Positions 25,233-37,676 of a DNA stretch of 64,000 nt are shown piece after piece. The DNA is taken from NCBI GenBank assembly GCA_016871195.1, contig VFZN01000001.1:186001-250000 (forward strand), given 5' to 3'. Within the stretch, counting starts at the first letter, position 1. Every line of letters starts with the position of its first letter. The position numbers were made by a program, and so were the translations under genes. Source of the DNA: Acidobacteriota bacterium (GTDB lineage Bacteria > Acidobacteriota > Vicinamibacteria > Vicinamibacterales > UBA2999). Under the pieces are notes generated by a model, which saw only the letters and a list, made by a program, of their open reading frames with translations, did no database searches and was not told the DNA's origin.

Positions 25233-28109
25233 CTAGAACGTGAACTTGATACCGAACTGCAGCTGGCGCTGCTCGTACCCGCCGGTCGGCACCAGATCCT
25301 TGCCGCTCTTCGGCAGCGCCACGGTGGGCACGCCGAGCGTATCGGTCGCAATGACGGCGTTCACGCCCGACACCTGCACGGTGTTGAACAGGTTCTTCAC
25401 TTCCGCAATCGCCTCGATGGCGCGGTTGCCACCCACGCGCACACGACGCGAATAGCGGAAGTCAACGTTATAGCGCGCGGGCAGGCGCAGCGAGTTGCGC
25501 GCCACACCCACAGGACGGTCAGCCGCCGTGCCGTCGTTGTTCAGCTCGCGGTTGCTGCGCAGGTTGATCGGAATGCCGCTCGCAAACTGCATCGCGATGC
25601 CAAACACGTTGTTGTTCAGGATGGCGCCCATCGCGCCATCCTTGTCGACCTGCGGCGTCGCCACGACGCTGCCCGTAAACGTGTGCCGCTGGTCGAGCAC
25701 ATTCGGACCGCGGTCGCGGTCGAGGCTGGTCACGTCAGTACGGCCCGCATCGCCCTGCACCGACAGTGCGCCGGTGATCGGGGCATTGTCGTCGCTCTTG
25801 CCCAGCGTATAGGCCAGGTCAAAGCCGATGCCGTTCACATTGCGCCGCGTGAACTGCAGCGTCATGTTCCTGTAGGTCGACTCGCCGATCGACTGCGTGG
25901 CGTTGATGACGTTATAGAGCGGATTCGCGCGCGTCGAGGCGTTGACCGCCGTGCTGAAGATCGGGTTGCCGTCCGACAGCGTGCCAATCGGGTTGATGAG
26001 GTTGATGTTCGTCACCACCGGCAGGTTGTAGCCGCGGACATACGAACCACCCACGCCCACCGAATAGCGATCGTTCAGCGCATGCTCGAACTGCACGTTG
26101 CTCTGCCACGCACGGGCAATCTGGAAGCTCGGATCCACGGTCCACGCCGTGTTCGGCTGCGCACCCGCGCCGGCGCTGAGAATCGCCGGGAACCGCGGGG
26201 CCCCCACCTGCGTGGGCTGGAGCGATGCCGACGCCCGCGCATTGGTGCCGTCATTCTGCAGCGCCTGCTCATAGATGGCGTTGAGCGGCTGGTCGAACAT
26301 CAGGCCCGTGTTGCCGCGCAGCACCGTGCGGCGCTGATTGCCGAGGGTCCACACAAAACCGAAGCGGGGCGCGAAATTGTTCTTGTCGATCGCGAACTCG
26401 CGCGACGTGGCAATCGGGGCATTGGCCACCGGATCAGGCGTGCGGTAGCGGTCGTAGCGCACGCCGTACAGCACCTTCAGGTTCGACGTGACGCGCCAGT
26501 CGTCCTGCACGAACAGGCCCAGCTGCGACGTGTTGTACTCGAGATTCGGCTGGCCGAAGTATTGGGTGAACGTCTGGTAGCCGAGGGGGTTGGCACCGCT
26601 CACCGCTGCCTGATACGCCGCGACGTTCGCGAAGGTGTACTGCGCGGCCGGAGCGGCCGTGCGCGTGTCCTGCACCATCTGCACGTCGAAGCCCGCCTTC
26701 AGCGCGTGATCGCCACGCAGGTAGGTGGTGCTGTTGTTCACCTGCAGCACGTTCTGCGTGAAACCGAAGCCCGCATCAGACACGCTGCCCACCGGGCCGC
26801 CGATGTTCGCCACGCCGGTGATGTTCACCGCCGGGCCCTTGCCTGCCAGTGCGTTGGGCGTGCGGGCCTGCGCGCGCGTCGCATACTGCACGCGCAGTTC
26901 GTTCAGGAAGCTGCTCCCCAGCGTCGACACCAGCTGCGCCGCCGTCGAGTGCTGGCGGTCGGTGAAGTCGGTCGCGCGCTGCACCGACGTCAGCCCGCCG
27001 CCGATGTTCGCCGTGATGAAGTTGTCGAAGAACATGTAGCGCACCGACAGCCGGTTGCCCTGGCTCAGCTGGTGGTCGATCTTGCCGATGGCAAACTCGG
27101 TGTTGAGTCCGCGCGGCATGTAGCGCGGTTCAGTCAGGCCCAGCGCGGCCTGGTTGGCCGCCGAAATCGTGATGACGCTCAGCCCCGACAGGTCACGTTC
27201 CGTGTGCTCGTACCCGCCGAAAAAATGCGTCTTGTCCTTCACAATCGGACCGCCGAGGTCGAACGTGTAGACATTCACGTCCGTCGGCGGCTTGTTGGCC
27301 GTCGTGCGCTCGCCCTGCGTGTAGAACGGAAATGCCACCATCGGCTGGCGCTGGAAGCGGTAGCTGCCCTGCCCCCGGAAGGTATTCGTGCCCGACGGCG
27401 TAATCGCGTTATAGACCAGCCCCATCGTCTGCCCGAATTCGGGTGCGTAGCCGGTGGTCACCACCTTCACTTCGCGAATCATCACTTCCGACATCGGCAT
27501 CTGCCGCAGGCCGGCGCGATCCTTCTGCGTGTTGTTGCTGCCGTCCACCTGATAGTTGACGCGCAGCAGCGCGCCGTTCGCCGTCAGGCGGGGCACACCG
27601 AATTCGTTGGTTTCAAAGCCCACCACGCCCGGCTGCAGCAGCGCGAAGTTGTAGGGGTTGCGCGAGGTCAGCGGCAGCGTCTTGATTTCCGCCTGACTCA
27701 GCGTGCGGCCCTGCTCGATCTTGCCGAGGTCGACAATCGGCGCATCGGCCGTGACCGTGACCGTTTCTTCCAGGGTGCCCACTGACAGCGAGAAACTGAT
27801 GACGGCGGTCTGCCCCGCCCGCAGCGTGACACCCGTCTGCTCGAACTTCTTGAAGCCCTGCAGCTCGGCCGTCACCTTGTATGTGCCGAGCGACAGCAGC
27901 GGCGCGCGGTACAACCCGCGTTCGTTCGTCACAACCGCACGCGTGTCGCCGGTGTCGATGTTGACCACCGTCACGGTGACGCCCGGCAACACCGCCTTCT
28001 GATCGTCGGTGACCGTGCCTTCAATCGTGCCGTTGATGGCGGTCGACTGTGCCGCCGCAGAGACGGCGGTGGCCAGCGCCAGCATCAGGGCCAGGAATGT
28101 TCGCTGCAT
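25233..28109 (-). CDS. TonB-dependent receptor with carboxypeptidase-regulatory-like domain
   Basis: A 958-residue outer-membrane protein of the Oar/acidobacterial TonB-receptor type. After the signal peptide, residues ~25-110 form a carboxypeptidase-regulatory-like beta domain (GTIEGTVTDDQKAVLPGVTV). A plug domain follows (ADAPIVDLGKIEQGRTLSQ; VNYQVDGSNNTQKDRAG), then a beta-barrel ending in an aromatic residue (QLQFGIKFTF). A GGGAGG lies nine bases upstream of the ATG and TATACT about 40 bases upstream. The ligand is unknown; downstream PIG-L suggests a glycan, as inference only. A 941-residue open frame on the other strand is a shadow. Confidence 0.92.
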   Translation of the reverse strand: MQRTFLALMLALATAVSAAAQSTAINGTIEGTVTDDQKAVLPGVTVTVVNIDTGDTRAVVTNERGLYRAPLLSLGTYKVTAELQGFKKFEQTGVTLRAGQTAVISFSLSVGTLEETVTVTADAPIVDLGKIEQGRTLSQAEIKTLPLTSRNPYNFALLQPGVVGFETNEFGVPRLTANGALLRVNYQVDGSNNTQKDRAGLRQMPMSEVMIREVKVVTTGYAPEFGQTMGLVYNAITPSGTNTFRGQGSYRFQRQPMVAFPFYTQGERTTANKPPTDVNVYTFDLGGPIVKDKTHFFGGYEHTERDLSGLSVITISAANQAALGLTEPRYMPRGLNTEFAIGKIDHQLSQGNRLSVRYMFFDNFITANIGGGLTSVQRATDFTDRQHSTAAQLVSTLGSSFLNELRVQYATRAQARTPNALAGKGPAVNITGVANIGGPVGSVSDAGFGFTQNVLQVNNSTTYLRGDHALKAGFDVQMVQDTRTAAPAAQYTFANVAAYQAAVSGANPLGYQTFTQYFGQPNLEYNTSQLGLFVQDDWRVTSNLKVLYGVRYDRYRTPDPVANAPIATSREFAIDKNNFAPRFGFVWTLGNQRRTVLRGNTGLMFDQPLNAIYEQALQNDGTNARASASLQPTQVGAPRFPAILSAGAGAQPNTAWTVDPSFQIARAWQSNVQFEHALNDRYSVGVGGSYVRGYNLPVVTNINLINPIGTLSDGNPIFSTAVNASTRANPLYNVINATQSIGESTYRNMTLQFTRRNVNGIGFDLAYTLGKSDDNAPITGALSVQGDAGRTDVTSLDRDRGPNVLDQRHTFTGSVVATPQVDKDGAMGAILNNNVFGIAMQFASGIPINLRSNRELNNDGTAADRPVGVARNSLRLPARYNVDFRYSRRVRVGGNRAIEAIAEVKNLFNTVQVSGVNAVIATDTLGVPTVALPKSGKDLVPTGGYEQRQLQFGIKFTF

Positions 28110-28212
28110 GGAGCGGAGCCTCCCAAATCAAATACGGACCAGCTGTCAGTATATGTCCGGCAGCTTGAGGTCATCGACTGAAACGACGGTCCCGTCCCCG
28201 GCGATGCAGGGG

Positions 28213-28218
28213 CATAAT
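28213..28218 (+). promoter_or_regulatory. -10-like element ahead of the penicillin acylase gene
   Basis: CATAAT ends six bases before GTG 28225. The spacing matches other presumed leaderless starts here and is the reason for choosing that GTG over ATG 28204. Confidence 0.5.
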
Positions 28219-28224
28219 GTCGAC

Positions 28225-30645
28225 GTGATAACCGTCCTCAGGCGGGTGCTGGGTCCCCTGCTGGTGATAACACTCGTGCTCGGACTGGGAGCCGCATGGT
28301 GGGTGCGCACCCGGCTCCACGACAGCCTGCCGGTGCTGGAGGGAGAACTCGCGGTCAAGGGCCTGTCGGCACCGGTCACCGTCACCCGCGACGCCAGAGG
28401 CATTCCCTTCATCTCGGGCGGATCGCGTGCAGACGTCGCGCGCGCCCTCGGCTTCATCCACGCGCACGACCGCTTTTTCCAGATGGACCTGCAGCGTCGC
28501 CAGCCCGCCGGCGAGCTCAGCGCCCTGGTCGGACCCGCGGCCGTCGCCGCCGACCAGCGCATGCGGCCCCACCGGTTCCGTCAGGTGGCCCGCGAGGCCC
28601 TCCAGAGGGCCGATCCGTCGTGGCGCGACCTGCTCGTCGCCTACACCGACGGCGTCAATGCAGGACTCGCCGCCCTCGGCGCGCCCTCGTTCGAGTACGC
28701 CCTGCTGCGCCAGTCGCCCGAGCCCTGGACGCCCGAAGACTCGATTCTGGCCGTTATGGCGATGTTCGTGGCCCTGCAGGGGCGCCAGATGGAGTTTGAA
28801 CAGGGCGCCGAACAGGTGCGAAGTGCCGTGCCCCCCGAGGTGTTCGAGTTCCTCACCCGCGCAGGGTCAGAGTGGGACGCCCCCGCTGAAGGCGAGGCCA
28901 TCAGCCGCCCCCCTGTGCCAGAGCCCGGGCAGTTCAATCTGCGCAGCACACTGGCGGCTGCCGCCCTGCCCGTCGCGGATACAACCGCCGATCCCGACGC
29001 CATCGCTCACGCCGCGATTGGCTCGAACAACTGGGCCGTCGACGCCGCGCACACCGGCGGGCACGGCGCCCTGCTCGCCAACGACATGCACCTGCAGCTC
29101 GGCGTCCCCAACATCTGGTACCGCGCCGCGATGCAGTTCCCCGACCCGTCGCAGCCGGGCACCACCCGCACGCTGCACGGCGTCACCCTGCCGGGCCTGC
29201 CCGTCCAGGTCGTCGGCAGTAATGGCGACGTGGCCTGGGGCTTCACCAACACGGGAGGCGACTGGAGTGACCTGGTCCGCATTGATCCCGATCCCGCCAA
29301 CCCTGATCGCTACCTCACGCCCGATGGACCGCGCGCGTTTGAGCACCTCACCGAGCCGATCGAGGTTCGTGGCGAATCCGCCCGCCCCCTCACCATTCGC
29401 ACCACCATCTGGGGGCCCGTCGTCTGGACCGATGTCGACGGCCGCGACTATGCCCAGCACTGGGTGGCCCACGATCCCGACGTCATTGCCGGCGATCTCT
29501 CACGTCCCGAACGGGCCCGCACCATCGATGAGCTCATGACAGCAGTCGTCGGACTCGGCGTGCCCCATCAGAATGTCGCCATGGCCGGCCGCGATGGCCG
29601 CATCGCCTGGACGGTGGGCGGGGCTATTCCCGTCAGGCGTGGCTTCAGTGGTACCACACCGGTGTCATGGGCCGACGGCACCAGCGGGTGGGACGGCTAT
29701 CTTCCCGCCGCCGCGATGCCCCGCATCATCGACCCCGAGGTCGGCCGCGTGTGGACCGCCAACGCCCCCGTGGTCGATGGGGCGCGCCTCGCCACGATCG
29801 GCGACGGCGGCTATGCCGACGGCATCCGCGCCCGCATCATCCGCGATCACCTGCTGGCGCGCACCTCGGCCAGTCCGCGCGACATGCTCGCGCTGCAGCT
29901 CAACGACCGCGCCCTCTTCCTCGAACGCTGGCGCACCCTCGCGCTGCGCACACTCGATTCGGCCGCAGCCGCAGCGCCAGCCGACCGCGCAGACGCGCGT
30001 CGCCAGATGCGCGACCTCATCGACCGCACCTGGACCGGCCGGGCCTCGACCGACTCGACCGGCTACCGCCTGGTCCGCATGTTCCGCACCGACATCGTCC
30101 GCCGCGTACTCACCTTCGTCACCGCACCCGTGAAACAGAAAGACCCGACGTTCGACTACACGCAGCTGGGCCGCACCGAAGGCCCCGTCTGGGCCATCGT
30201 CGATGCACGGCCGATGCACCTGCTCGACCCCCGCTATGAGTCGTGGGATGCGCTGTTTCTCGACGCCATCGACGCGGTCTATGCCGAACTGACCGCCGAC
30301 GGTCGACCGCTGGCCGGACAGACGTGGGGCGAGGCCAACCGCGCACAGATCGTCCATCCGCTCACGGCGGCCGTGCCGCTGCTGGGCCGGTGGCTCAACA
30401 TGCCCGGCGATCCGCTGCCAGGCGATGCCTACACCCCGCGTGCACAGTCACCCCGCACAGGCGCGTCGGAACGGCTCGTCGTCTCACCGGGCCGCGAAGC
30501 CGAAGGGCTGCTGCAGATGCCGACCGGCCAGTCATCGCATCCGCTGTCGCCCTTCTTCGGGTCAATGCATCGCGAGTGGGTCGAGGGCACACCCATCCCG
30601 CTCGTGCCCGGCCCCGCGCAGCACACACTGACCCTGGTGCCCTGA
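28225..30645 (+). CDS. Penicillin acylase family protein (Ntn hydrolase)
   Basis: Enzymes of this family hydrolyse amide bonds of acyl side chains (beta-lactams, acyl-homoserine lactones and similar). The 806-residue precursor has one N-terminal hydrophobic segment (LLVITLVLGLGAAWW), which anchors or exports it. Residues ~50-266 form the alpha chain, with LGFIHAHDRFFQMDLQRRQ. Autoproteolysis would expose the nucleophile Ser267 in AIGSNNWAV, followed by GALLANDMHLQL. The beta chain ends in PFFGSMHREW. The start could be ATG 28204, which adds seven residues. It diverges from the TonB receptor gene. Acyl-homoserine lactone degradation is possible but not shown. Confidence 0.9.
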   Translation: MITVLRRVLGPLLVITLVLGLGAAWWVRTRLHDSLPVLEGELAVKGLSAPVTVTRDARGIPFISGGSRADVARALGFIHAHDRFFQMDLQRRQPAGELSALVGPAAVAADQRMRPHRFRQVAREALQRADPSWRDLLVAYTDGVNAGLAALGAPSFEYALLRQSPEPWTPEDSILAVMAMFVALQGRQMEFEQGAEQVRSAVPPEVFEFLTRAGSEWDAPAEGEAISRPPVPEPGQFNLRSTLAAAALPVADTTADPDAIAHAAIGSNNWAVDAAHTGGHGALLANDMHLQLGVPNIWYRAAMQFPDPSQPGTTRTLHGVTLPGLPVQVVGSNGDVAWGFTNTGGDWSDLVRIDPDPANPDRYLTPDGPRAFEHLTEPIEVRGESARPLTIRTTIWGPVVWTDVDGRDYAQHWVAHDPDVIAGDLSRPERARTIDELMTAVVGLGVPHQNVAMAGRDGRIAWTVGGAIPVRRGFSGTTPVSWADGTSGWDGYLPAAAMPRIIDPEVGRVWTANAPVVDGARLATIGDGGYADGIRARIIRDHLLARTSASPRDMLALQLNDRALFLERWRTLALRTLDSAAAAAPADRADARRQMRDLIDRTWTGRASTDSTGYRLVRMFRTDIVRRVLTFVTAPVKQKDPTFDYTQLGRTEGPVWAIVDARPMHLLDPRYESWDALFLDAIDAVYAELTADGRPLAGQTWGEANRAQIVHPLTAAVPLLGRWLNMPGDPLPGDAYTPRAQSPRTGASERLVVSPGREAEGLLQMPTGQSSHPLSPFFGSMHREWVEGTPIPLVPGPAQHTLTLVP

Positions 30646-30676
30646 TCGGCTGCCGCGGGGGCAGAGTCCGGGCCGC

Positions 30677-30694
30677 GGCCTCGTCGGCGAGGCC
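30677..30694. terminator. Hairpin between convergent genes
   Basis: GGCCTCG and CGAGGCC form a perfect seven-base stem with loop TCGG, centred between the penicillin acylase stop and the NHL gene stop. No T-run follows on either strand. Confidence 0.4.
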
Positions 30695-30716
30695 CCCCAT
30701 CGCTGCGCCCTTCGCC

Positions 30717-31880
30717 TTACCGACGCAGCATCAGCTTCTGCACGCGCCGGCCGTTGCCGACCTCGCTGACATACAGGTTGCCGCGAGAGTCGGTGGCCAG
30801 GTTGTGCATGAACACGAACTGTCCGGCATAGCGCCCGATGCGGCCATAGGTGCCGACCTCAGTCAGCGTCCGACGGTCGAGGATGTGGATGCGCCCATTG
30901 CCGGCATCCGCCACATACAGCCATCGCTGATCGGGATCCGGCGAAAACGCGGTGCTGAATGAGGTGCCCAGCAGGCGCGTCTGCCGCTCGATGAAGACTT
31001 CGCGCTGAAACCGGCCGTCGATCGTGAAGATCTGCACGCGGTTGTTCAGGCGATCGTTCACGTAGACGAGGCCATCGTTCGACACCTTGATGCCGTGCAC
31101 GGTGTTGAACTGCTGGGGGCCCGGTCCCTCGCCGGCAAACACCTGCGGCGTGCCGTCGTCAGGCGTGTTGCCGTAGGCACCCCACATCCGCTTGAACGCG
31201 CCCGTGTCGGCATCGAGCACGAGCACCCGACGGTTGATATAGCCGTCCGCAATGAACACCTCGTTGGTCGGCGCATGCACCCAGATGTCGGCCGCGTTGT
31301 TCACGTTGCGGGTGTCGAGGCTGCCCTGGCTCATGCCCCGCCGGCCGATCTGCAGCAGCAGGCGCCCGTCAGGGGTGAACTTCAGCAGAAAGTTTTCCTT
31401 CCGATCCCGCATGCGCGGCCCACCCGCTGACGAAATCCACACGTGGCCCTTGAAGTCGACGTGAATGCCGTGTTCATCCGCCGGCCATTCGTAGCGCTTG
31501 TCGGCCGGCTCTCCACCCCAGCCCCGGATGAAGTTTCCCGACGAATCGAACTCCATCACCGGGGGCGCGGCCTCGCAGCACGCAGCCTCGGGGTTCTGCC
31601 GCTTCTCGTCGCTGTTGATCGACCAGGGCCGCTGCAGAATCCACACGTGATCCCGGGCGTCGACGGCCACGCCAGACACCTGACCCAGAATCCACTGCGT
31701 CGGCAGCGTCGGCCAGCGCGGATCCACCTCGAACCTCGGCACCCCGCTGTCCGGCTGCGATCCTCTGTCAAGCGCCGTCACCGCCGTCGCCAGCACGCTG
31801 AGCGCGCAGACCACCACCAGCAACACCCGCGGGCGACGCGGGTTCACTGGTCGATCACCTGTGTGGCGTGGCATCCACAT
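30717..31880 (-). CDS. Exported NHL-repeat beta-propeller protein
   Basis: The 387-residue product has an N-terminal signal or anchor (VLLVVVCALSVLATAVTA) and then a six-bladed propeller of NHL/SMP-30-like repeats. Repeats are visible as VSGVAVDARDHVWIL, HGIHVDFKGHVWI, EVFIADGYINRRVLVLD, VHGIKVSNDGLVYVNDRLNNRVQIF, LYVADAGNGRIHILDR and HNLATDSRGNLYVSEVGNGRRVQ. Binding rather than catalysis is usual for NHL proteins, but peptidylglycine-lyase-like members exist. A GAGG lies seven bases before the ATG. It starts ten bases after the gamma-glutamyltransferase stop and is probably co-transcribed with it. Confidence 0.87.
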   Translation of the reverse strand: MWMPRHTGDRPVNPRRPRVLLVVVCALSVLATAVTALDRGSQPDSGVPRFEVDPRWPTLPTQWILGQVSGVAVDARDHVWILQRPWSINSDEKRQNPEAACCEAAPPVMEFDSSGNFIRGWGGEPADKRYEWPADEHGIHVDFKGHVWISSAGGPRMRDRKENFLLKFTPDGRLLLQIGRRGMSQGSLDTRNVNNAADIWVHAPTNEVFIADGYINRRVLVLDADTGAFKRMWGAYGNTPDDGTPQVFAGEGPGPQQFNTVHGIKVSNDGLVYVNDRLNNRVQIFTIDGRFQREVFIERQTRLLGTSFSTAFSPDPDQRWLYVADAGNGRIHILDRRTLTEVGTYGRIGRYAGQFVFMHNLATDSRGNLYVSEVGNGRRVQKLMLRR

Positions 31881-31889
31881 CGCCAGACC

Positions 31890-33719
31890 TCAATACCCCA
31901 TCGCATACCCGGTGCGCCGCGGGTCCGCGCCCGCCGTCATGGCACCCGTCACCTGATCCACGCGAATCACCTGCATGTGCCCGAGACTGCCCCACCCGGG
32001 CAACACACGCACGGTGTGTCCCATCTGCTCGAGCGCCGCAATGGTCGCCGGTGGCACTCGCCCCTCGACCTGCACGGTAATCGCCGCACCCGGCTTGTAG
32101 AAGTTCGGAGCCGCCTCGAGTACCAGCCGCGGTGCCTCAATCGCCGCCTGCACCGGCTGCGCAAAGTCGATGAGGTTCAGCAGCACCTGAAACTGCGTCT
32201 GACCGATCGTCTCGCCACCCGGCGTACCGAAGACAAACGCCAGCGTGCCGTCTTTCAGCACCACCACAGGCGAGTTGTTCAGAATCGGAATCTTGCCCGC
32301 GCCCACATAGTTCACGTCGGTCGGATAGGGTGACGTCGATCCGATCCGCATGCCGTTGTTCAGCAGCAGACCCGTGCGGCCCACCACCACGTTATTCCCG
32401 AACAGTCCTCCGAGCGTCGGCGTGCAGCCCACCGCATTGCCGAACCGGTCGACAATCGAGAACGACGTCGTGTGCAGCTCGCCGTCGTAGTGCTCGTCCC
32501 ACGCAGGTCCCTGCGCACGCGGCGTCGCCTCGGGTGTGCCCTCAGGCACACCAGGCGCCGGATACGGAATGGCCCGGGCCTGATCGAACAGCCGCCAGCG
32601 GGCCTCGGCAAAGCCTCGCGAGACCAGACCCGTCTGCGGCACACGCACAAACGCCGGGTCGGCCACATAGCGGTAGATGTCGGCTTTCGAAATCTTGATC
32701 GCCTCAATCACCGCATGCAAGTGCGCCGGCGAGTGCTGCCCGGCGGCCTTCAGATCGACGGGCGTAATGAGATTCGCCCCCATCACCACCTCGAAACCGC
32801 CGCGCGAGGTCGACGGATTGCTGTAGACATCGTGGCCGCGGTACGTCGTATGCAACGGCTCCTGCCACTGCGGCGCATACGCCGCGAGGTCGGCCGCCGT
32901 CAGCACCCCGCCGTTCTCGCGGAAGAACCGATCGATCTCCTGCGCAATGTCGCCCCGGTAGAACCGGTCGTAGGCCGCCTGAATCGCGGCCACCCGGCTC
33001 GCCCCGCCCTTCAGGGCCTGTGCTTCCGCCTCCACCAGCTTGCGCAAGGTCGCGGCATAATCCGGATTCTTCAGCAGCTCGCCCGCCTTCAGCGGTTCAC
33101 CGTTCGGCAGGAAAATCTTTGCGGTGGTCGGGTACTTCGCGAGGTTGTTGCGGCCCCGCGCAATCGACTGCGCCAGCATCACATCAATCGGATAGCCCTG
33201 CTCCGCATACGCAATCGCCGGCGCCAGCACATCGGCCACCGACAGCGTGCCGAAGCGCTGGAGCTGGACGAGATAGCCGCCGATGTTGCCCGGCGTGATG
33301 CCGGCCGTCATGCCCGCATTCAGCGTCTCGGGCGTCATCGCCTCGGGCTTCAGGGCCTTCGGCGCCGCGCCGGCCATCGACAGCGACCACACCTTCCTCG
33401 ACGACCGGTGATACATCGTCATGAAGCCGTTGCCGCCGATACCGTTCATCTCGGGTTCGCCGAGGCCGGCCATCGCGCCCACCGCCGCCGCCGCATCAAA
33501 GGCATTCCCACCCTTGACCAGCATCTGCAGGCCGGCAGACGCCGCAATGGGATGGCCCGCCGTCACCAGCCCGTGCACACCGGCCACTGCGGGACGCGTC
33601 AGGCCCGGCCGCGCCGACGCGGGCGCCTCGGCCGCCTGCTGCTGCGCGAGGCCGTAGAGGGTCGTGGCCCCCAGTGCAACAATCACGAACGATACGCCGA
33701 ACAGACGCTGCAGCCGCAT
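31890..33719 (-). CDS. ggt: Gamma-glutamyltransferase
   Basis: A periplasmic Ntn hydrolase that cleaves gamma-glutamyl bonds of glutathione-like compounds. The 609-residue precursor has a signal peptide (MRLQRLFGVSFVIVALGATTLYG), the substrate-binding region GGNAFDAAAAVGAMAGLGEPEMNGIGG, and the self-processing nucleophile Thr417 in GELHTTSFSIVD. The late GTPGGETIGQTQFQVLLNL is the C-terminal family signature. Upstream, TATACT lies 28 bases before the ATG, and GGGAG lies close to it. First gene of a two-gene unit with the NHL protein. Confidence 0.93.
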   Translation of the reverse strand: MRLQRLFGVSFVIVALGATTLYGLAQQQAAEAPASARPGLTRPAVAGVHGLVTAGHPIAASAGLQMLVKGGNAFDAAAAVGAMAGLGEPEMNGIGGNGFMTMYHRSSRKVWSLSMAGAAPKALKPEAMTPETLNAGMTAGITPGNIGGYLVQLQRFGTLSVADVLAPAIAYAEQGYPIDVMLAQSIARGRNNLAKYPTTAKIFLPNGEPLKAGELLKNPDYAATLRKLVEAEAQALKGGASRVAAIQAAYDRFYRGDIAQEIDRFFRENGGVLTAADLAAYAPQWQEPLHTTYRGHDVYSNPSTSRGGFEVVMGANLITPVDLKAAGQHSPAHLHAVIEAIKISKADIYRYVADPAFVRVPQTGLVSRGFAEARWRLFDQARAIPYPAPGVPEGTPEATPRAQGPAWDEHYDGELHTTSFSIVDRFGNAVGCTPTLGGLFGNNVVVGRTGLLLNNGMRIGSTSPYPTDVNYVGAGKIPILNNSPVVVLKDGTLAFVFGTPGGETIGQTQFQVLLNLIDFAQPVQAAIEAPRLVLEAAPNFYKPGAAITVQVEGRVPPATIAALEQMGHTVRVLPGWGSLGHMQVIRVDQVTGAMTAGADPRRTGYAMGY

Positions 33720-33807
33720 AGACGCTCCCGGGAATGAAGGTGCCCAGAGTATAGGCTGTCGAGCGGCACCCCACTCCCGCTAAGATGTCGCCACCAGGGA
33801 GGACTCC

Positions 33808-34383
33808 ATGCGTCGTTTTCACAAGCAGGCCAGCTGTGCAGTCGCAATGATCGCTGTGTTCAGCAGCGCCGTGTCCGAGGTTCGGGCCCAGGCGCCTCAG
33901 GCGCCCCCGTCAGGTGGGCCCGCCGTGGCGGCCCCGACCTACGTATCGATCGCCCTCGACATCACCGTCAATCGCCCGGCGGATGATGTCTGGAAGCGAA
34001 TCGGCAAGTACTGTGACATCGGAGAATGGCTGCAGATGCCGTGCACCATCACGTCCGGCAAGGACGGCGAACTGGGCGCGGTACGCTCGGTGGCCAACGA
34101 GATTCTGGTCGGTCGCTCGCTGCGGTCCTACACCTACACCCAGCCCGTGCGCAATGATCGGCCCTACAACATGTACCACGGCACCCTGGAAGTCAGGTCA
34201 CTGACCGCGACGACCTCGTCCATCGTGTACGTGCTTGTCTGGGACAACTCGATGCTGGCCGACGATGCGGCACGACAGGCTGACGTGACCCGGCGTCGCG
34301 CCACATTCGTGCGTGCCCTCGACAACATGAAGATCCTGGCGGAAGGCGGTACGCTGCCCCCCAAGCCGGCTGCCGAGCGGTGA
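33808..34383 (+). CDS. Secreted SRPBCC-superfamily protein
   Basis: A 191-residue protein with a signal peptide (ending near VRAQ) and one START/SRPBCC fold, which binds hydrophobic ligands in a deep pocket. The fold is recognised from SIALDITVNRPADDVWKRIGKYCDIGEWL and the late amphipathic helix VTRRRATFVRALDNMKIL. A strong Shine-Dalgarno (AGGGAGGA) precedes the ATG, and TAAGAT lies about 20 bases upstream. Its stop overlaps the amidase start in a GTGA junction, so the two are co-expressed; the ligand is unknown. Confidence 0.85.
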   Translation: MRRFHKQASCAVAMIAVFSSAVSEVRAQAPQAPPSGGPAVAAPTYVSIALDITVNRPADDVWKRIGKYCDIGEWLQMPCTITSGKDGELGAVRSVANEILVGRSLRSYTYTQPVRNDRPYNMYHGTLEVRSLTATTSSIVYVLVWDNSMLADDAARQADVTRRRATFVRALDNMKILAEGGTLPPKPAAER

Positions 34384-35942
34384 GGCGCACCTGCACGGCA
34401 CTGCTCGCCCTCTGGGGACTGCTGGTAACGCATCACAGCCCGATGGTCTCATCGACACACGCACAGGCCCGGCCCACACCCCTCGTGTGGGCCGACGCCA
34501 CCGTGGCCGACATCCACCGCGCACTCGCAGCGGGCGAGGTCACCTGCCGCCAGGTCGTACAGGCCTATCTCGCTCGCATCGAGGCCTACGACCGCCGCGG
34601 GCCGTCTCTCCGCGCAATCATCGCCGTCAATCCCCGTGCGCTCGACGAGGCCGATCGCCTCGACCGCGAGGCCGCACGCGGCGCGACACAGGCACCGCTT
34701 CACTGCATTCCGCTCATCCTCAAGGACAACTTCGACACGGCCGACATGCCCACCACCGGGGCCTCGCTCACCCTCGCCCGCTCGGTGCCCCCGGACGATG
34801 CCTTTGTGGTGAAGCGGTTCCGCGCGGCAGGGGCCATCGTTGTCGCCAAGGCCAACCTGACAGAGCTCGCGCTGACGGGCGTCACCGTAAGCTCGCTCGG
34901 GGGACAGACGCTCAATCCCTACGACCTGACGCGCACGCCCGGCGGCTCGAGCGGAGGGACGGGTGCGGCCATTGCGGCAGGCTTTGCGGTGCTCGGCACG
35001 GGCAGTGACACGGGCCAGTCGATCAGGTCACCGGCCTCGGCCAACAGCATCGTAGGCCTGCGCCCCACGCGCGGACTGGTGAGCCGCGACGGCATCATGC
35101 CGTTCAGTGTGACGCAGGATGAAATCGGGCCGATGACCCGCACGGTGGAAGACGCCGCGCGCATGCTCGACGTGATGGTGGGCTACGACAGCGCCGACCC
35201 CATCACGGCCTTCGGCATCGGCCGTACACCCGCCAGCTATCGGGCGACACTCGACCGCGGGGCGCTGAAGGGCGCGCGACTCGGACTCCTGACTGATGTG
35301 CTGGGGCGCGAGGCCGTGCATGCACCGGTCAACCGCGTAGTTGAAGAGGCCGTCGCAGCCATGACCGCGCAGGGGGCCACCGTTATGCGCGTGTCGATTC
35401 CGGGGCTGACCGACCTGACTCGTGGCCTCAGCCTGATGGCACTCGAGTTCCAGCCGTCCTTCAACCGCTATCTCGCCAGCTTGGGGCCGGCGGCGCCGGT
35501 GAAGACGTTTGCCGAGTTCATGGCGCGCGGCGAGATGCATCCCACGCTGAGACCCGTGCTGGAGGAATATCTGCAGGTGACCGATGGACCCGAGCGACCG
35601 GAATACGATCGCCAGCTGCGGCGTCGCGCCGCCTTGCGCCAGGCCATCATGACGGTGCTGGCCGATCACCAGCTCGACGCATTGCTCTATCCCCATCAGA
35701 GCCGCCTCGTGGTGCCGATTGGCGAAGACCAGGCCGATCGGAATGGCGTGCTCTCGAACAGCACCGGCCTTCCCGCGCTGACCTTCCCGGGTGGCTTCAG
35801 CGCACCCACGGCCACTGCATTCATCGGAGTGCCGGTGGGCCTCGAGCTGCTGGGCCCTGACTGGTCCGAGGCCACCCTGCTGCGACTGGCCTACGCCTAC
35901 GAGCAGGCGACCCGTACCCGCAAGCCCCCGCGGCTGCCGTAG
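34380..35942 (+). CDS. Secreted amidase (amidase-signature family)
   Basis: A 520-residue hydrolase with an N-terminal signal peptide (TCTALLALWGLLVTHHSP). The Ser-cisSer-Lys triad is visible: Lys in PLILKDNFDTADMPTTGAS, and the two serines in the signature TPGGSSGGTGAAIAAGFAVLGTGSDTGQSIRSPAS. The usual GSDTGGS is GSDTGQS here, a Gly-to-Gln change beside the nucleophile. The C-terminus GVPVGLELLGPDWSEATLLRLAYAYEQ is typical. The start is GTG 34380, overlapping the SRPBCC gene. The substrate is unknown. Confidence 0.9.
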   Translation: MRRTCTALLALWGLLVTHHSPMVSSTHAQARPTPLVWADATVADIHRALAAGEVTCRQVVQAYLARIEAYDRRGPSLRAIIAVNPRALDEADRLDREAARGATQAPLHCIPLILKDNFDTADMPTTGASLTLARSVPPDDAFVVKRFRAAGAIVVAKANLTELALTGVTVSSLGGQTLNPYDLTRTPGGSSGGTGAAIAAGFAVLGTGSDTGQSIRSPASANSIVGLRPTRGLVSRDGIMPFSVTQDEIGPMTRTVEDAARMLDVMVGYDSADPITAFGIGRTPASYRATLDRGALKGARLGLLTDVLGREAVHAPVNRVVEEAVAAMTAQGATVMRVSIPGLTDLTRGLSLMALEFQPSFNRYLASLGPAAPVKTFAEFMARGEMHPTLRPVLEEYLQVTDGPERPEYDRQLRRRAALRQAIMTVLADHQLDALLYPHQSRLVVPIGEDQADRNGVLSNSTGLPALTFPGGFSAPTATAFIGVPVGLELLGPDWSEATLLRLAYAYEQATRTRKPPRLP

Positions 35943-35956
35943 CCCCTGCGCAGGGG
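35943..35956 (+). terminator. Short palindrome directly after the amidase stop
   Basis: CCCCTGCGCAGGGG is a perfect 14-base palindrome immediately after the TAG. It lacks a T-run. It may slow or end transcription or protect the mRNA 3' end. From here to 36012 nothing else is seen. Confidence 0.35.
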
Positions 35957-36012
35957 ACGGCCGCCGCGGTGACGGAGCCCTGTGCGATCCCCAGGCCGCC
36001 CGGCGTGCAGGG

Positions 36013-36183
36013 TCAGTGTGAACAGAACCGTGTGATGATGCCGCCGAACGGAGCAGCCCGCCCATCCGAGAAGATGCGGACCCCCGCGCGGGTGACCGCA
36101 CATGGGGTGCCCTGCGAATCGAGACGTATCATGGCCCACCCTATCGACGTGCTGCCAAGGTCGAGGGCCAGGCGATAGTGCAT
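36013..36183 (-). pseudogene. cas9: Truncated cas9: RuvC-I N-terminal stub only
   Basis: The 56-codon frame begins at ATG 36183. Residues 1-42 match the N-terminus of Cas9, especially type II-C: YRLALDLGSTSIGWAMIRLD then RAGVRIFSDGR, with Asp8 in the place of the first RuvC catalytic residue. After residue 42 (base 36058) the usual Asn-Pro-Lys and arginine-rich bridge-helix sequence is absent. Fourteen unrelated residues follow, then TGA. Full Cas9 proteins are about 1,000 residues or more; nothing to the left, including antisense to the amidase gene, continues it. No Shine-Dalgarno precedes the ATG. It is divergent from a tracrRNA-like unit 60 bases away. I read it as a deletion remnant; a functional micro-protein is a less likely alternative. 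Confidence 0.85.
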
Positions 36184-36210
36184 GGTGGGAAGGGCATCGC
36201 GAACAGCGGT

Positions 36211-36240
36211 TTGTTGAGAAGCCTTTGGGTGTGTCATACT
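36211..36240 (+). promoter_or_regulatory. Promoter of the tracrRNA-like transcript
   Basis: TTGTTG at 36211-36216 and CATACT at 36235-36240 are 18 bases apart (17 if TGTTGA is used). This is a good sigma-70-type promoter in a window where -35 elements are otherwise hard to find. It predicts a start near 36246-36248. Confidence 0.6.
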
Positions 36241-36245
36241 TCGGT

Positions 36246-36331
36246 TCTAGCGACTTGGGATATGCGCTCTGGACGCTAACACGCTGAAAGATGCACCAGA
36301 TGCAGGGGCCGCTACATGCGGCCCCTTTTTC
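36246..36331 (+). ncRNA. tracrRNA-like small RNA beside the cas9 stub
   Basis: About 86 bases lie between a promoter and a strong intrinsic terminator, with no ORF. In order it holds: a 5' region where an anti-repeat would be expected, with TAGCG (36248-36252) able to pair with CGCTA (36274-36278); CTGAAAGATGCACC at 36284-36297, close to the post-anti-repeat segment of the Neisseria meningitidis tracrRNA as I remember it; a TGCA-CCAGA-TGCA mini-hairpin (36292-36304); and a terminal GC hairpin with T5. Layout, size and adjacency to cas9 support a tracrRNA. Without a repeat array the anti-repeat cannot be proven. Alternatives are an unrelated small RNA or a leader. Confidence 0.6.
36305..36330 (+). 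terminator. Intrinsic terminator of the tracrRNA-like RNA
   Basis: GGGGCCGC and GCGGCCCC form a perfect eight-pair stem with loop TACAT, followed by TTTTT. It is the clearest rho-independent terminator on the plus strand of the window. Confidence 0.92.
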
Positions 36332-36340
36332 GTTTCGGCA

Positions 36341-36376
36341 GTTGTGACTGTTCCAGAAGTATAGGCACGAGCGTTC
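36341..36376 (+). other. Possible single degenerate CRISPR repeat (unproven)
   Basis: This 36-base stretch starts GTTGTGACTG. Three blocks can pair, in antiparallel order, with the 5' part of the tracrRNA-like RNA: GTTG (36341-36344) with 36277-36280, CCAGA (36353-36357) with 36268-36272, and GTAT (36359-36362) with 36260-36263, with bulges between. Only one copy exists, so it is not an array. The pairing may be chance. The rest, 36377-36536, contains a GTTCC-CACTC-GGAAC hairpin (36373-36387) but no gene. Confidence 0.2.
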
Positions 36377-36536
36377 CCACTCGGAACCCGTTTTTCAGGG
36401 TCGGGAAAAAGTACTCACATCTTTCCCAGCTGTCGATGCTTGAGCGAACAGCGCCGCCACAGTCAGAGTCGCTGGTGGTGACGGCCGTCAGGGCCAGCCG
36501 TCTCGACGACGTGTAACCGCCCCGCCCCACCCGCCA

Positions 36537-37676
36537 CTAGCGCATCTGCAACGCGTCGTACGCCTGCGTCACCCGCGCGACCGCTTCGTCGAGTGTGTCG
36601 GCCACCACCGTCAGGTGCCCCATCTTGCGACCGGTGCGCGGCTCGGCCTTGCCGTACAGGTGCAGTGCCACGCCCGGCACCGCCAGGGCCGCAGCCCACT
36701 GCGGGTCGCCGCCGGCCCACACATCGCCCAGCAGATTGATCATCGCCGCCGGCCGATGCTGCGTTGTGGAACCCAGCGGCAGGCCGCACACCGCGCGCAC
36801 CTGCTGCTCGAACTGGCTCGTCGCACACGCCTCAATCGTGTAATGCCCCGAGTTGTGCGGCCGCGGCGCAATCTCGTTCACCAGCAGCCGCCCGTCGCGC
36901 GTGACGAAAAATTCCACGCACAGCACGCCCACATAGTCGAGCGCGTTCATCACGCGGCGCGCCAGCGCACTCGCCTCGGCCGCCACCGTGACCGACACCC
37001 GTGCCGGTGCCATGGTGAGGTGCAGGATATGATGCCGATGCACGTTCTCGACCGCGCCGTAGTCAGCCATCCTGCCGTCGGCACTGCGCGCCGCCACCAC
37101 CGACACCTCGCACGCAAAGTCGATCACCTGCTCGACAATCGCCTCGCCCCCGCCCAGTCGCGCCCACACAGCAGCGACATCGCGCTCGTCATGCACACGC
37201 TGCTGGCCCTTGCCGTCGTAGCCGAACGCCGCTGTCTTCACAATCGCCGGCACGCCCACCACTGACAGCGCCGCACGCAACTCGTCGGCAGAGGTCACGC
37301 GCACGCACGGGGCCACCGGAAATCCCTGCGCCTGCAGGAAGGCCTTCTCGCGCGCACGCTGCTGGGTCGTATGCAGCGCCGCACCGCTCGGGCGCACCAC
37401 CGCGACCTCGGCCGCGGCCGCCGCCGCCTCCGCCGACACATTCTCAAACTCCATCGTCACGACGTCGACCGCCGAGGCGAAACGACGGATGGCGGCGAGG
37501 TCGTCATACGAACCGGTCACTTCGACGTCGGCCACCTGGCCGGTCGGAGAGTTGGTGTCAGGAGAATACGTGTGGACGCGGTAGCCCATGCGCCGGGCCG
37601 CCAGCGCGAACATGCGGCCCAGCTGGCCGCTGCCCAGCACACCGATCGTGCCGCCCGGCAGCACCCGGTCGATCAC
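36537..37676 (-). CDS. purK: 5-(carboxyamino)imidazole ribonucleotide synthase
   Basis: PurK is an ATP-grasp enzyme that carboxylates aminoimidazole ribonucleotide at nitrogen in purine synthesis. The 379-residue protein starts GTG 37676 and begins [20 protein letters not shown], the PurK dinucleotide-like motif. ATP-grasp elements include [12 protein letters not shown], the grasp Glu in VCVEFFVT-like VLCVEFFV, and [18 protein letters not shown]. The start overlaps the purE stop by four bases. No terminator with a T-run follows. Confidence 0.95.

What the first reader, a model, noticed from the sequence alone, without database searches (positions are those of the whole stretch)
36013..36183. 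A 42-residue cas9 RuvC-I remnant stands alone between housekeeping genes
The sequence shows a clean Cas9 N-terminus (LALDLGSTSIGW, GVRIFSDGR, Asp8) that breaks at about base 36058 and ends 14 codons later. No other cas gene or array is visible in 64 kb. Established knowledge: this motif order is specific to Cas9 RuvC-I, while IscB and TnpB differ. Inference: a type II-C locus was deleted here, leaving the start of cas9. The ATG and the divergent RNA unit survived, so the stub might still be transcribed, for example as a target for tracrRNA-guided autoregulation.
Basis: partly seen in the sequence, partly recalled or inferred. Interest (0 to 1): 0.85.

Follow-up and report, generated by a model that had tools for sequence, protein, structure and literature searches.

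The report
Orphan tracrRNA beside a cas9 stub
This bacterial chromosome carries the leftover of a lost CRISPR-Cas9 immune system: one well-preserved guide-helper RNA gene (tracrRNA) next to the first 42 codons of cas9; the same kind of leftover turned up in several unrelated genomes, so it looks like an ordinary deletion scar and not a new device.

Summary
Minus-strand ORF 36013-36237 contains a genuine Cas9 N-terminus (42 residues, 36058-36183), up to 79-85% identical to betaproteobacterial type II-C Cas9, breaking after codon 42. The "divergent RNA unit" is the more striking part: 36249-36332 (+) is a nearly intact type II-C tracrRNA (anti-repeat, conserved tail, terminator), found at E = 8.8e-18 by a covariance model built without the window. 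The rest is missing from the held 3.08 Mb genome: no other cas9 piece, no cas1, no matching repeats. No genus, family or order genome sampled has this cas9 or tracrRNA, so the locus was acquired laterally and then mostly deleted, or arrived as a fragment. Six other genomes show a like fate: tracrRNA plus cas9 stub (L005, L033, L074) or tracrRNA alone (L179, L182, L186), with no intact cas9 found in them. The window's tracrRNA is about as divergent as those of intact loci, with one change at a nearly invariant tail position; this fits a recent loss. Autoregulation is not supported, since no Cas9 remains to carry it. Verdict: a real, well-preserved remnant of a known kind; modest interest.

The parts
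36058..36183 (-). cas9 5' end: codons 1-42 (MHYRLALDLGSTSIGWAMIRLDSQGTPCAVTRAGVRIFSDGR), RuvC-I motif with the catalytic-type Asp at residue 8
   Evidence: TIGR01865 E 1.3e-7; up to 79-85% aa identity to II-C Cas9; a search with the full L046 Cas9 finds only this piece in the genome, E 1.3e-13
36013..36057 (-). non-homologous 3' tail of the stub ORF (14 codons and stop) after the breakpoint
   Evidence: sequence and translation; no match to the II-C loci or relatives' DNA
36184..36248 (.). divergent intergenic region between the cas9 start and the tracrRNA; no sigma-70 consensus site found by the scan
36249..36275 (+). tracrRNA anti-repeat (contains CGACTTGGGATATGCGCTCTGGA), matching repeats of II-C arrays in intact relatives
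   Evidence: blastn to array repeats of L069, L034, L046 and others; a match to one strand of the array means complementarity to crRNA transcribed from the other
36276..36303 (+). tracrRNA conserved tail (around GCTAACACGCTGAAAGATGCACCAGATG), nearly invariant in relatives
   Evidence: alignments; CM hit 36252-36332, 78.1 bits, E 8.8e-18, model built without the window
36304..36332 (+). tracrRNA intrinsic terminator (AGGGGCCGC-TACAT-GCGGCCCCT, then T-run)
   Evidence: terminator scan; fold of 36246-36340 -38.2 kcal/mol, z -3.4
34380..35942 (+). amidase gene flanking the breakpoint side
   Evidence: ORF; homologues in 29 of 43 family genomes, none found next to purK
36537..37676 (-). purK flanking the tracrRNA side, with purE and two M16 peptidase-like genes beyond it (neighbourhood conserved in the genus)

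Best explanation
This is the scar of a type II-C CRISPR-Cas9 locus of the betaproteobacterial kind, laterally acquired next to purK. A deletion removed cas9 from codon 43 onward together with cas1, cas2 and the array. What remains is the divergent tracrRNA gene and the first 42 codons of cas9. Shown: the identity of both pieces, the breakpoint, the absence of the rest from the assembly, and parallel cases in other genomes. Inferred: lateral acquisition, deletion in place, recent loss, and no present function. The tracrRNA may still be transcribed and terminated, but with no Cas9 and no crRNA it has no known partner in this cell.
For: The stub matches Cas9. The tracrRNA is found by an independent covariance model at E 8.8e-18 and sits in the same divergent position as in dozens of intact loci. 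No other cas9 fragment, cas1 or repeat is in the genome. Of 396 phylum genomes only two have a tracrRNA of this type: this one and G085, whose cas9 is intact. No stub homologue was found in the genus, family or order genomes sampled, apart from one weak 35%-identity match that I judge unrelated. Parallel scars: L005 is a deletion from cas9 into a cas2-like end with repeats kept; L033 and L074 are tracrRNA plus cas9 stubs of 111 and about 60 aa, not at contig ends. tracrRNAs with no cas9 nearby or elsewhere in the genome: L179, L182, L186. The tracrRNA-versus-stub divergence is close to that of intact pairs (84-88% against 85-91%), so it is not strongly decayed.
Against: No relative with an intact cas9 at this junction was found, so deletion in place is inferred. 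The assembly has 51 contigs and is 98% complete, so a cas9 on an unassembled piece cannot be fully excluded. The tracrRNA is preserved well enough that retained function is conceivable.
Confidence: 0.68

Rival explanations
1. The fragment arrived already broken: a short piece holding tracrRNA plus the cas9 start was transferred or inserted here, and this lineage never held a complete system. It is still an inert remnant of a II-C locus.
For: No relative in the family or order has a related system. In same-genus relatives the interval beside purK holds other genes, so the region is variable.
Against: Other genomes show deletion scars within II-C loci, L005 with its repeats still in place. I saw no mobile-element ends at the borders, though I did not search for them exhaustively.
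Confidence: 0.23
2. Assembly artefact: the contig is chimeric or collapsed here and the living genome has a complete cas9.
For: Draft assembly of 51 contigs; reads are not available to check the junction.
Against: The remnant is flanked on both sides by genes whose homologues lie in the same neighbourhood in same-genus genomes, so two false joins would be needed. No cas9, cas1 or repeat sits on any other contig. Similar scars occur in other assemblies.
Confidence: 0.04
3. A retained functional unit: the orphan tracrRNA, or the 56-aa RuvC-I peptide, has been co-opted, for example as a regulatory RNA.
For: tracrRNA architecture is intact, including the terminator. tracrRNAs without an intact cas9 recur: 4 of 30 tracrRNA loci examined in one betaproteobacterial family sample.
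Against: Recurrence is explained by deletion, since tracrRNA lies at the edge of the locus. Several orphans show changes in positions that hardly vary in intact loci (L186 five; the window has A to G in CACCAAATG). No Cas9 partner is in the genome. Neighbours of the orphans differ from genome to genome.
Confidence: 0.05

Closest known systems
Type II-C CRISPR-Cas loci of Betaproteobacteria (e.g. Hylemonella, Limnohabitans, Acidovorax, Gallionellaceae)
   Same: Cas9 N-terminus up to 79-85% identical; divergent tracrRNA of the same architecture and up to 93% identity over 69 nt
   Different: cas9 after codon 42, cas1, cas2 and the array are absent
[quoted passage not shown] in Mollicutes (PMC6882279: at least 8 of 21 systems degraded)
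   Same: Partial locus left after inactivation; acquisition and loss are described there as frequent
   Different: Here only tracrRNA and 42 codons of cas9 remain, in a different phylum
Long tracrRNA (tracr-L) repression of cas genes in type II-A (PMC11417352)
   Same: Concerns a tracrRNA and the control of cas genes
   Different: Needs Cas9, which is absent here; no long-form tracrRNA was identified

Membership tests
Cas9 (TIGR01865), functional protein | RuvC-I motif with conserved Asp near the N-terminus | tested here: met
   LALDLGSTSIGWA; HMM E 1.3e-7
Cas9 (TIGR01865), functional protein | bridge helix, REC lobe, HNH, RuvC-II/III and PAM-interacting domain; curated cut-off of 100 bits | tested here: not met
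   only model positions 1-35, 30.2 bits; nothing else in the genome
Type II-C tracrRNA | anti-repeat complementary to the cognate repeat, conserved tail, intrinsic terminator, position beside cas9 | tested here: met
   the repeat was taken from relatives' arrays, since none exists in this genome
Type II-C tracrRNA | transcribed, and processed with crRNA and Cas9 | not testable with these tools
   no RNA data; no sigma-70 consensus promoter found by the scan
Type II-C CRISPR-Cas system | cas9, cas1, cas2 and a CRISPR array | tested here: not met
   cas9 truncated, cas1 absent, no cognate repeats; cas2 was not searched separately across the genome
tracrRNA-guided cas9 autoregulation | a Cas9 protein to be guided | tested here: not met
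   no Cas9 in the genome
tracrRNA-guided cas9 autoregulation | long-form tracrRNA with a spacer-like match to the cas9 promoter | not tested
   not examined, because the Cas9 requirement already fails

The most novel reading that the evidence does not exclude
Orphan tracrRNAs that outlive their Cas9 are sometimes kept by selection as stand-alone RNAs with a new partner; the window's well-preserved copy would be one of them.
Probability: 0.04. Interest if true: 0.65.

Novelty: new member of a known kind. Interest (0 to 1): 0.27.

Why it matters
It places the loss of a Cas9 system in a lineage with no other trace of one. It also shows that tracrRNA can outlast cas9, cas1-cas2 and the array. A tracrRNA covariance model is therefore a sensitive probe for past CRISPR-Cas9 carriage that cas-gene searches miss, and methods that infer Cas9 presence from tracrRNA alone should expect orphans (4 of 30 tracrRNA loci examined here lacked an intact cas9).

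Tried and rejected
(1) Mobile carrier: only a 27-bp hit in plasmids, nothing in phages or viral contigs. (2) The other half of the locus beyond the breakpoint: 35943-36057 matches neither the II-C loci nor relatives' DNA. (3) Empty site in relatives: purE-purK is conserved, but the amidase is not next to purK in any of them, and two same-genus genomes hold a long beta-propeller/fibronectin-like ORF (my reading of its sequence) in the interval, so no clean before/after comparison exists. (4) Rfam: no tracrRNA family hit. (5) Excess conservation of the tracrRNA as a sign of function: not seen. (6) The weak hits at model positions of about 550-674 are probably other HNH nucleases (inference), not Cas9. 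(8) Literature searches for an orphan tracrRNA with a cas9 remnant gave only the general degraded-locus precedent.

Full report
WHAT WAS CLAIMED. A 42-residue Cas9 RuvC-I remnant at 36013-36183 with no other cas gene in 64 kb, read as the trace of a deleted type II-C locus, possibly still transcribed and autoregulated by tracrRNA.

THE STUB. The minus-strand ORF exists: stop ending at 36013, ATG at 36183 and an upstream in-frame ATG at 36237. It hits the NCBI Cas9 model TIGR01865 (E 1.3e-7, model 1-35), five PADLOC Cas9 models and solved Cas9 structures (best E 3.8e-7). In public genomes 109 stretches encode relatives; the best 80, mostly betaproteobacterial, match at 49-81% identity. The 42 residues MHYRLALDLGSTSIGWAMIRLDSQGTPCAVTRAGVRIFSDGR are 79-85% identical to the best of them. 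Similarity stops after codon 42, where intact proteins continue NPKDGSSLAVTRR or similar; the 14 following codons are unrelated.

THE tracrRNA. Comparing 700 bp around the stub with the fetched loci gave the stronger signal on the other strand. Window 36255-36335 is about 90% identical to the DNA just upstream of intact cas9 genes, and 36246-36275 matches the repeats of their arrays. Read on the + strand this is a tracrRNA: anti-repeat, CGCTAAC, GAAAGATGCAC tail and a 9-pair terminator. A covariance model from 25 other tracrRNAs, without the window, finds 36252-36332 at 78.1 bits, E 8.8e-18, as the only hit in 64 kb. Rfam gives no matching family.

WHAT IS MISSING. In the 3.08 Mb assembly (98.2% complete, 51 contigs) the Cas9 HMM finds only this piece. 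So does a full close homologue at E up to 1. No cas1 matches even at E 1. The repeat core occurs once at full match, inside the tracrRNA; the other two hits carry 3 mismatches and stand alone.

RELATIVES. None of the genus, family or order genomes sampled has a stub homologue, except one weak 35%-identity hit. In about 300 genomes of the phylum no other member of this family or order carries Cas9 above the cut-off. The tracrRNA model rings in 2 of 396 phylum genomes: this one and G085, where cas9 is intact beside it. purE-purK and the M16 genes are conserved beside the site. The interval on the other side of purK is variable, but the next gene beyond it (28036-30645) has its homologue in the same place in two same-genus genomes. 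So the system is foreign to this lineage, and both flanks belong to the host chromosome. That also argues against a chimeric contig.

SIMILAR SCARS ELSEWHERE. Of the 80 public loci, three have cas9 stubs away from contig ends. L005 (an isolate, Limnohabitans T6-20) runs from about cas9 codon 57 into a cas2-like C-terminus (my reading of the sequence), with repeats retained. L033 keeps 111 aa and L074 about 60 aa, both with tracrRNA and then unrelated genes. Their genomes have no intact cas9. In 401 genomes of the L005 family group, 37 carry this tracrRNA. Of the 30 loci fetched, one is L005 itself and three (L179, L182, L186) have tracrRNA with no cas9 beside it. Those three genomes hold no Cas9 over the cut-off. 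Reduction of the locus to its tracrRNA end is thus a repeated outcome. My stub search started from the N-terminus, which favours finding this end.

AGE AND SELECTION. tracrRNA identity between the window and intact loci (84-88%) lies at or slightly below that of intact pairs with the same stub divergence (85-91%). The window differs at one tail position (CACCAGATG) that hardly varies in 70 intact tracrRNAs, and its terminator changes keep pairing. This fits a recent loss without purifying selection since. The numbers are too small to prove neutrality.

MECHANISM. A tracrRNA works by pairing with crRNA and binding Cas9 (established knowledge). Here neither partner is encoded, so I infer no current function. 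The proposed autoregulation requires Cas9 and is not supported; tracr-L repression is described for type II-A (PMC11417352). Degraded type II loci are well known, for example at least 8 of 21 systems in Mollicutes (PMC6882279).

VERDICT. Observation confirmed; interpretation partly supported; a new member of a known kind (degraded II-C locus). Interest is modest, mainly because a tracrRNA model can reveal past Cas9 carriage that gene searches miss.

Noticed in passing
L051:3822-3913 (-), L053:3804-3895 (-); also G767:C16 with two hits: Acidovorax II-C loci carry a second tracrRNA-like tail about 1 kb upstream of the normal tracrRNA, with the anti-repeat replaced by another 5' part (in L051 the hairpin-like GGCAGCAGGAGGCTTGCCTCC). 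It could be a duplicate, a decoy or a different class of Cas9-binding RNA.
   Followed up: partly
L190:8333-8413 (+) (G806): An orphan tracrRNA with a fully conserved tail but an altered 5' half of the anti-repeat lies about 100 bp upstream of a type I-C-like cas3-cas5-cas8c-cas7 operon, in a genome with no Cas9 over the cut-off. Gene names are read from the sequence, not tested by profile.
   Followed up: partly
L189:8040-8230 (G456): An orphan tracrRNA preceded by two degenerate repeat-like stretches (GTGCACATATCCCAGTGAACTAG and GTGCACATTTCCGAGTAAACTGG), in a genome without a Cas9 hit.
   Followed up: no
L005:4992-5795: In Limnohabitans T6-20 the cas9 start is joined by a deletion to a region encoding a cas2-like C-terminus within a single 267-aa open frame, followed by retained CRISPR repeats.
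   Followed up: partly
window 30645-36537: The interval between a penicillin-acylase-like gene and purK holds gamma-glutamyltransferase-like, SRPBCC-like and amidase genes plus the CRISPR scar here, but a long beta-propeller/fibronectin-like ORF in two same-genus genomes: a variable region.
   Followed up: partly
L069:5001-8047: The cas9 of one of the loci with the most similar tracrRNA is split by a frameshift at about codon 150 (residues 5-151 and 148-1054), so it may be an early stage of decay or a sequencing error.
   Followed up: no
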